DNA from: a bacterium | GTDB lineage: Bacteria; Patescibacteriota; Minisyncoccia; Phycocordibacterales; UBA1550 | Assembly (NCBI GenBank): GCA_030649835.1 | Contig: JAUSES010000071.1 | Location: 1 to 34,301, forward strand | Direction: 5' to 3' | DNA: 34,301 bases | Shown here: positions 33,502 to 34,117 of the stretch, in pieces | Position numbering within the stretch: the stretch's first letter is position 1 | Layout of the letters: each line of letters starts with the position of its first letter | Notes under the pieces: generated by a model | What the model saw: the letters and a program-made list of their open reading frames with translations, nothing else | Told to the model about the DNA's origin: nothing | The model's database searches: none | Made by a program: the position numbers and the translations under genes

Positions 33502-34117
33502 GCCCATATCAGATGGTTGCCCCGTGAGATAATTATGTATTATACATACGTTTTACAAAGTGAATCCACCAAGCATTTTTATGTAGGATACACGAATGAT
33601 CTTAAGCGTCGGTTTTTGGAACATCAGGAGAATAAGTCACTGAGTACTAAAAATCGAGGTCCTTGGAGATTAGTATATTACGAAGCATCTACTTCAAAAA
33701 CAGACGCCTTGATTCGTGAGAACTACTTAAAAACTGCTTGGGGAAAGAGGTATATAAAAAATCGTATTTCACATAGTACATAGCTATCTCACGGGGAGGA
33801 AAGTCCGAACACTCCCGAGCACCAGCAATGGTGCTCGGAGCAGGGTAGCGGGTAACGCCCGTCAGGAGTAATCCGAGAGGTGCGAGCAGAGACGCCCAGA
33901 TCGAAAGTGAAGGGAATCCTTCGGGATTAGTCCTCGTAGTAATGCGAGGGGTGAAACGGCAAAATCCTTACCTGGGTGCAAGGCCGTGCCGAGCACCAGC
34001 AATGGTGCTCGGAGTGCCGCTCGAGGGTGTGGGTAACCACACTCCCAGATAAATGATCATCCAAAGCGAGGTTAAACCTTGCTGGGACAGAATTCGGCTT
34101 ATCGATATGGATTATAA
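33502..34117 (+). ncRNA. rnpB: RNase P RNA (bacterial type A-like) with an ORF filling the P3 apical loop
   Basis: Conserved GAGGAAAGTCCG, GCAGGG...GGTAACGCC, ACAGAATTCGGCTTATCG. P1 CCATATC(33504-33510)/GATATGG(34104-34110); P2 GATGGTT/GATCATC; P3 CCCCGTGAGATA(33520-33531)/TATCTCACGGGG(33785-33796). Confidence 0.92.
33535..33783 (+). CDS. GIY-YIG family nuclease (single-domain), nested within rnpB P3
   Basis: MYYTYVLQSESTKHFYVGYTNDLKRRFLEHQ...STKNRGPWRLVYYEASTSKTDALIRENYLKTAWGKRYIKNRI. ORF track start at 33463 lies upstream of the promoter -10 and is not used. Confidence 0.93.
   Translation: MYYTYVLQSESTKHFYVGYTNDLKRRFLEHQENKSLSTKNRGPWRLVYYEASTSKTDALIRENYLKTAWGKRYIKNRISHST

What the first reader, a model, noticed from the sequence alone, without database searches (positions are those of the whole stretch)
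33502..34117. A GIY-YIG endonuclease ORF occupies the P3 loop of the RNase P RNA gene
Seen directly: the canonical rnpB core (GAGGAAAGTCCG onward) begins at about 33785, but the P1, P2 and P3 5' strands lie about 250 nt further upstream, before a complete ORF. P1 pairs CCATATC (33504-33510) with GATATGG (34104-34110). P2 pairs GATGGTT with GATCATC. P3 is a perfect 12-bp helix, CCCCGTGAGATA (33520-33531) with TATCTCACGGGG (33785-33796). The 253-nt P3 loop consists almost entirely of the ORF: its ATG is 4 nt after the P3 5' strand and its stop ends 1 nt before the P3 3' strand. A TTGTGT-17-TATAAT promoter sits just before P1, so one transcript would be both ribozyme and mRNA. Removing the insert leaves about 360 nt, a normal bacterial RNase P RNA size. 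Inference: a selfish homing-type nuclease has colonised a tolerant loop of an essential ribozyme, or the RNA is a bifunctional or fragmented RNase P. I do not know of a described precedent, and novelty needs a literature check.
Basis: partly seen in the sequence, partly recalled or inferred. Interest (0 to 1): 0.96.

Follow-up and report, generated by a model that had tools for sequence, protein, structure and literature searches.

The report
Mobile nuclease element inside RNase P RNA
In a tiny uncultured bacterium, the only gene for RNase P RNA, an essential RNA enzyme, carries inside one of its loops a complete miniature mobile element that encodes a DNA-cutting enzyme; the element's own paired ends form the helix, which suggests how parasitic DNA can live inside an essential RNA without destroying it.

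Summary
The genome's single rnpB (RF00010, 83.4 bits) carries an intact 82-aa GIY-YIG ORF in the P3 loop. P1 and P2 pair across the ORF: in seven ORF-bearing genes, 13 of 14 pairs show changes on both sides. The "P3 helix" is the 12-bp terminal inverted repeat (TIR) of a ~277-nt element, CCCCGTGAGATA-ORF-TATCTCACGGGG. Relatives with cognate TIRs occur at over 100 loci in many phyla, some splitting conserved codons of other mobile genes. P3 copies occur in seven Patescibacterial lineages, but not in the window's closest rnpB relative (84% identical). A second GIY-YIG clade with different TIRs sits in the P16/P17 arm of five other rnpB genes, and one further ORF in P19. ORF-less hairpins with the same TIRs fill other loops, and in several genomes those TIRs occur only in rnpB. 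The ORFs are under strong purifying selection and all 13 are sense to rnpB. Best reading: a site-specific, Slx1-like nuclease-driven mobile element that targets hairpin tips and builds its own helix, so the ribozyme tolerates it. Mobility, cleavage and RNA processing are inferred. GIY-YIG insertions in CPR rRNA are published; none in RNase P RNA was found.

The parts
33421..33466 (.). terminator-like hairpin upstream, separating rnpB from the preceding gene
   Evidence: 20-bp stem
33490..33495 (+). TATAAT -10 element of rnpB; TTGTGT at 33467-33472 is a weak -35
   Evidence: TATAAT-like motif before P1 in most relatives; not flagged by the promoter scan
33504..33510 (+). P1 5' strand
33512..33518 (+). 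P2 5' strand
33520..33796 (+). whole inserted element (277 nt), TIR to TIR, occupying the P3 arm
33520..33531 (+). 5' terminal inverted repeat = P3 5' strand (CCCCGTGAGATA)
33535..33783 (+). GIY-YIG endonuclease ORF, 82 aa (Slx1/UPF0213-like), catalytic motif intact (Y3, Y16, G18, R26, H30, E62 invariant)
33785..33796 (+). 3' terminal inverted repeat = P3 3' strand (TATCTCACGGGG)
33797..34110 (+). rest of RNase P RNA (class A core); conserved blocks 98-99% identical to the two ORF-less genus-mates compared
33815..33840 (+). hairpin CCGAGCACCAGCAATGGTGCTCGGAG in the loop before P7; identical copy in the P16/P17 arm
33989..34014 (+). identical hairpin CCGAGCACCAGCAATGGTGCTCGGAG in the P16/P17 arm, the site that holds a GIY-YIG ORF in five other rnpB genes
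34055..34061 (+). P2 3' strand
34104..34110 (+). P1 3' strand
34120..34147 (+). terminator-like hairpin ACCACAG..CTGTGGT + T run
   Evidence: by eye; not listed by the scan

Best explanation
A small autonomous mobile element (two 12-13 bp terminal inverted repeats around one 82-aa Slx1-like GIY-YIG nuclease gene) sits at the tip of helix P3 of the only RNase P RNA gene. SHOWN by sequence comparison: its TIRs can pair as RNA and replace or extend P3, so P1, P2 and the catalytic core can fold around it; it recurs at this exact site in distant Patescibacteria; the protein is under purifying selection; sister elements and ORF-less derivatives occupy other loops of the same gene. INFERRED: the nuclease recognises a hairpin or cruciform with its cognate C-rich stem in element-free rnpB (and other sites), cuts it, and the element is copied in by break repair or template switching. 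Because the element ends in a palindrome, each insertion into a hairpin tip yields a longer hairpin, which is nearly neutral for a structured RNA. The ORF is transcribed from the rnpB promoter and translated from the precursor or before folding closes P3. ORF loss leaves the short hairpins.
For: Same-site ORF in P3: window, L018, L019, L020, L110/L128, L334, L340. P1/P2 covariation across the ORF, 13/14 pairs. TIR at most GIY-YIG loci of many phyla, arms 12-19 bp against 6-7 in shuffles. P3 ORFs form one clade (100/96 against the other labelled groups, with two free-standing metagenome copies inside it), nested in free-standing elements; the P16/P17 ORFs form another (98/84). The window's rnpB is 84% identical over 321 nt to ORF-less L006, yet L018, L019 and L020, whose ORFs it shares, align only in short pieces: incongruent, as in horizontal spread. 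dN/dS 0.03-0.1 in the closest unsaturated pairs. TIR motifs found only in rnpB in G003, G004, G008, G013 (13 of 13 hits) and in G017, G018 (6 of 6). G317 has the same P3 stem without the ORF while its genus-mate G749 has the ORF. Slx1 and UPF0213 are the best folds. Free-standing copies split integrase and HATPase_c_4 genes at conserved codons. All 13 rnpB ORFs are sense.
Against: No cleavage, transposition or RNA data. No recent, near-identical copies were seen (synonymous sites among P3 ORFs are near saturation), so current mobility is not shown. Target-site rules are unresolved; flanks vary and no constant target duplication was found. The tree rests on 79 columns. ORF-less hairpins could partly arise by intragenic hairpin exchange without the nuclease.
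Confidence: 0.7

Rival explanations
1. Conventional free-standing homing endonuclease gene: the nuclease cuts ORF-less rnpB at P3 and is copied by homologous recombination between flanks; the TIR is merely co-converted P3 sequence and plays no part in mobility.
For: Same-site occupancy of an essential gene and sporadic distribution are typical of homing.
Against: The same TIR motif flanks relatives at unrelated sites in other phyla and ORF-less hairpins in other rnpB loops, so the TIR travels with the element.
Confidence: 0.2
2. Domesticated bifunctional locus: the GIY-YIG protein now serves the host, for example in RNase P RNA maturation, and is kept for that.
For: Strong purifying selection; sense orientation in 13 of 13; shared transcript.
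Against: Absent from rnpB in 11 of 16 genus members and from P3 in 15 of 16, including the closest; the rnpA protein is present; free-standing homologues sit at unrelated sites.
Confidence: 0.07
3. IVS-like insertion: the long TIR helix is cut out by RNase III, so mature RNase P RNA is fragmented (P1-P3 5' piece + 3' piece). This concerns RNA fate and is compatible with the best explanation.
For: Perfect stem and long AU-rich loop; CPR rRNA insertions are compared with RNase III-cleaved IVSs in PMC11270868.
Against: No RNA data; 12 bp is short for RNase III (own knowledge).
Confidence: 0.3
4. Degenerate rnpB, pseudogene or assembly artefact.
For: RF00010 score below gathering.
Against: Only rnpB copy; core blocks 98-99% identical to genus-mates; same arrangement in independent assemblies; ORF open and constrained.
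Confidence: 0.02
5. Self-splicing intron with a GIY-YIG ORF.
For: GIY-YIG homing enzymes often live in group I introns; the window has a group I intron near the 23S end.
Against: No intron family matched 33401-34200 up to E=1; the 253 nt are filled by the ORF.
Confidence: 0.01

Closest known systems
GIY-YIG-encoding non-intron insertion sequences in CPR 16S/23S rRNA (Tsurumaki et al. 2024, PMC11270868)
   Same: Patescibacteria, GIY-YIG ORF, not a group I or II intron, insertions mostly at the top or base of stem-loops of a structural RNA; the window's own 16S gene has one in h6
   Different: Host gene is the RNase P ribozyme; no mention of RNase P, hairpins or inverted repeats was found in that text, and the paper places GIY-YIG outside spread by homing
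Diverged CPR RNase P RNAs with extended helices (Lui et al. 2021, PMC8172020)
   Same: CPR rnpB below the Rfam threshold, with extended helices
   Different: No GIY-YIG is mentioned, and in the passages read no ORF, mobile element or repeated TIR was recognised; this work suggests many extensions are palindromic insertions
Free-standing GIY-YIG homing endonucleases and I-TevI
   Same: GIY-YIG catalytic domain, site-specific occupancy
   Different: Single 82-aa domain, Slx1/UPF0213-like fold, no DNA-binding extension, TIR at both ends
23S rRNA intervening sequences (IVS; own knowledge)
   Same: Insertion in an apical loop, closing stem, sometimes an ORF
   Different: Different protein (S23 family), host and TIR
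Rickettsia palindromic elements; yeast mitochondrial GC clusters; cyanobacterial repeats in rnpB (own knowledge)
   Same: Short palindromic repeats that enter RNA genes
   Different: No nuclease ORF within the element

Membership tests
Bacterial RNase P RNA class A | conserved core and P4/P5 segments | tested here: met
   RF00010 E=1.2e-25; core blocks 98-99% identical to two ORF-less genus-mates
Bacterial RNase P RNA class A | score at or above Rfam gathering cut-off | tested here: not met
   83.4 against 100 bits, explained by the P3 insert; P1/P2 covary across it
Bacterial RNase P RNA class A | pre-tRNA 5' processing activity | not testable with these tools
   needs biochemistry
GIY-YIG nuclease superfamily | GIY-YIG domain with catalytic Y, Y-x-G, R, E | tested here: met
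   PF01541 1.1e-15; Y3, Y16, G18, R26, E62 invariant in 38 homologues; model pLDDT 92, Slx1/UPF0213 fold
Homing endonuclease gene | occupies the same site in homologous alleles of different lineages, sporadically | tested here: met
Homing endonuclease gene | cuts the empty allele and converts it | not testable with these tools
   no cleavage or cross data
TIR-bounded transposable element | terminal inverted repeats that travel with the ORF | tested here: met
TIR-bounded transposable element | constant target-site duplication | tested here: inconclusive
   flanks of 117 elements vary
TIR-bounded transposable element | ORF-less derivatives with the same ends | tested here: met
   rnpB loops of L013, L018, L020, L110, L016, L335
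Group I/II intron | catalytic intron structure | tested here: not met
   no intron match at 33401-34200, E up to 1
IVS-type insertion | excised from RNA without ligation | not testable with these tools
   no RNA data

The most novel reading that the evidence does not exclude
A new class of minimal autonomous mobile element (~280 nt: two short inverted repeats and one 80-aa Slx1-like GIY-YIG nuclease acting as its transposase/homing enzyme), spread over many bacterial phyla. It targets or forms hairpins, and in Patescibacteria it has made the RNase P ribozyme a dedicated habitat where element ends serve as RNA helices.
Probability: 0.45. Interest if true: 0.92.

Novelty: new variant of a known kind. 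Interest (0 to 1): 0.87.

Why it matters
It shows repeated, maintained colonisation of an essential single-copy ribozyme by a protein-coding mobile element, and suggests a simple reason for its tolerance: the DNA ends of the element double as an RNA helix. It suggests that the odd helix extensions of CPR RNase P and rRNA are largely mobile palindromes, and that detection cut-offs miss such genes. It points to a very small nuclease-driven element, far smaller than standard insertion sequences, with a testable link between Slx1-like hairpin or branch cleavage and mobility.

Tried and rejected
Intron: rejected. Second rnpB copy: none. ORF replacing the RNase P protein: rejected, rnpA is present. 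GIY-YIG genes beside tmRNA (L192, L197, L200): neighbours on the opposite strand, not insertions. The window's 23S insert at 248-456: no TIR or GIY-YIG seen, set aside. Start-codon preference of free-standing elements: only a mild excess (22/117 against 8% per random position). Target-site duplication: no constant rule. Pfam did not confirm the RAYT-like genes split in L021, L044, L148, so that label rests on motifs recalled from memory. Ten literature searches found no GIY-YIG in bacterial RNase P RNA; the library lacks most subscription papers and preprints.

Full report
CHECK OF THE OBSERVATION. The 82-aa product is a GIY-YIG protein (PF01541, E=1.1e-15). RF00010 covers 33775-34117 with 83.4 bits (E=1.2e-25), below the gathering score, because without the distant 5' strands the model has to force unrelated sequence into P1-P3. 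The own genome (1.06 Mb, 97.98% complete) has no other rnpB and has a normal rnpA. The predicted fold of 33500-34117 contains P1, P2 and P3 across the ORF (z=-9.2).

THE PAIRING ACROSS THE ORF IS UNDER SELECTION. rnpB genes with the same ORF in P3 were found in the genomes/contigs L018, L019 and L020 (Parcubacteria/Patescibacteria MAGs), in metagenome contigs L110/L128, in G749 (L334) and in G1083 (L340, same phylum, other class). Their P1 and P2 sequences differ almost everywhere yet pair: 98% of cells are standard pairs and 13 of 14 pairs show changes on both sides; covariation is 0.946 against 0.47 in shuffles and at most 0.24 for slid partners. So the two ends of the transcript are kept as one RNase P RNA although an ORF lies between them. 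The conserved core blocks of the window are 98-99% identical to the two ORF-less genus-mates compared.

WHAT THE INSERT IS. In all P3 copies the helix is the same: C-C-(C/A)-C-GTGAGATA...TATCTCAC-G-(G/T)-G-G, although the rest of the loops differ. When flanks of the GIY-YIG relatives from public genomes and metagenomes were scanned, most were bounded by the same kind of inverted repeat, ACCCCGTKAGATA...TATCTMACGGGGT or a variant such as ACCCTGTTAAATA, with arms of 12-19 bp against 6-7 in shuffled flanks. Hosts include Ignavibacteria, Bacteroidota, KSB1, Verrucomicrobia, Desulfobacterota and Patescibacteria. The element is therefore TIR + one small ORF + TIR, ~277 nt, and the 'P3 helix' is its TIR. 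Free-standing copies split other genes at conserved codons: four at REAVI|NAVAHRDY of HATPase_c_4-type genes, others in tyrosine recombinases.

RNASE P RNA AS A HABITAT. In the genus of the window (16 genomes), five rnpB genes carry GIY-YIG ORFs: P3 in the window; the arm after GCAAGGCCGTG (P16/P17 region) in G003, G004, G008 and G013; and G013 has a second ORF in P19. One order-level relative (G443, L317) also has the P16/P17 ORF. The P3 and P16/P17 proteins belong to two separately supported groups, and the P3 group nests among free-standing elements with two metagenome free-standing copies inside it (only 79 columns, so details are weak). All 13 rnpB ORFs are sense to rnpB. ORF-less hairpins of ~50-100 nt with the same TIRs occupy further loops. 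L020 has the CCCGTGRGATAA-type TIR in four loops; L016 has CCCCCCACCAAT in two loops besides the related TIR around its ORF. About a third of 130 parsed rnpB genes (a sample enriched for long and low-scoring ones) have at least one insert-like hairpin with perfect arms of 11 bp or more (not curated one by one). These TIR words are nearly confined to rnpB: 13 of 13 hits in G003, G004, G008 and G013 and 6 of 6 in G017 and G018, although only 1 of 3 in the window's genome. In the window itself two other loops carry an identical hairpin, CCGAGCACCAGCAATGGTGCTCGGAG (33815-33840 and 33989-34014).

EVIDENCE FOR MOVEMENT AND FUNCTION OF THE PROTEIN. The closest rnpB to the window's is L006 (84% over 321 nt), which has an ordinary short P3; the rnpB genes that share the ORF (L018, L019, L020) align to the window's only in short pieces, while the ORFs are 69-79% identical in protein. 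G749 and G317 belong to one genus; the first has the ORF, the second has the same TIR stem closed by a 12-nt loop. This is a filled and an empty (or deleted) form. The ORFs are constrained: dN/dS 0.09 for window-L018 and 0.03 for L012-L016, with near-saturated synonymous sites, so the protein has been needed for a long time but recent transposition is not shown. Y3, Y16, G18, R26, H30 and E62 are invariant in 38 homologues. The AlphaFold model (pLDDT 92) is closest to UPF0213 BH0048 and to Slx1 structures, and less close to I-TevI. Slx1 cuts branched DNA (established knowledge), which fits an enzyme acting on hairpins or cruciforms, but this is inference.

HOW IT MOST LIKELY WORKS. Shown: a TIR-bounded GIY-YIG element at a hairpin tip of the only rnpB, recurrent, constrained, with its TIR able to serve as RNA helix. 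Inferred: the nuclease recognises its cognate C-rich stem in element-free alleles or extruded hairpins, cuts, and the element is copied by repair; the palindromic ends make the insertion structurally harmless; expression comes from the rnpB transcript, and translation competes with P3 closure because the start codon lies 3 nt from the TIR. ORF loss or internal deletion leaves the short hairpins that fill other loops. Rivals (plain homing gene, domesticated gene, IVS-like fragmentation) are listed with tests.

KNOWN OR NEW. The held literature describes GIY-YIG ORFs in non-intron insertions at stem-loop tips of CPR rRNA genes (PMC11270868) and diverged CPR RNase P RNAs with extended helices (PMC8172020). 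The window's own genome has such a 16S insertion in h6, with its own TIR. I found no report of a protein-coding insertion in bacterial RNase P RNA, of TIR-bounded GIY-YIG elements, or of mobile palindromes in CPR rnpB, but that library lacks most subscription papers and preprints. I therefore rate it a new variant of a known kind, with a serious chance that the element family is a new class.

Noticed in passing
G000:C14:16112-16363 (locus L196 1459-1791): The same genome has another GIY-YIG ORF inside 16S rRNA helix h6, bounded by its own TIR GCCCAGCCCATTCA/TGAATGGGCTGGG.
   Followed up: partly
L014 1740-2417 (reverse strand; G013): One rnpB holds two different GIY-YIG ORFs (P16/P17 arm and P19); the first has YIS instead of YIG, so its active site may be decayed.
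   Followed up: partly
L110 1442-1682 and L128 2001-2241: P3 ORF frameshifted near codon 24 in two near-identical metagenome contigs: a possible decaying stage.
   Followed up: no
L034, L041, L046, L144: Four independent free-standing GIY-YIG elements split HATPase_c_4-type genes at the same codons (REAVI|NAVAHRDY); others split tyrosine recombinases.
   Followed up: partly
window 33815-33840 and 33989-34014: Two loops of the same RNase P RNA carry an identical 26-nt hairpin; variants also occur elsewhere in genus-mates' genomes.
   Followed up: partly
window 248-456: ORF-less ~209-nt insertion in 23S rRNA next to CTATAACGGTCCTAAGG (I-CreI/I-CeuI-like site).
   Followed up: no
window 1220-1419: Group I intron (RF00028, 64.9 bits) overlapping the 3' end of the LSU rRNA match; the real 23S 3' exon probably lies beyond it.
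   Followed up: no
L192, L197, L200: A different GIY-YIG protein (35-36% identical) lies next to tmRNA on the opposite strand in three genomes: apparently a conserved neighbour gene.
   Followed up: no
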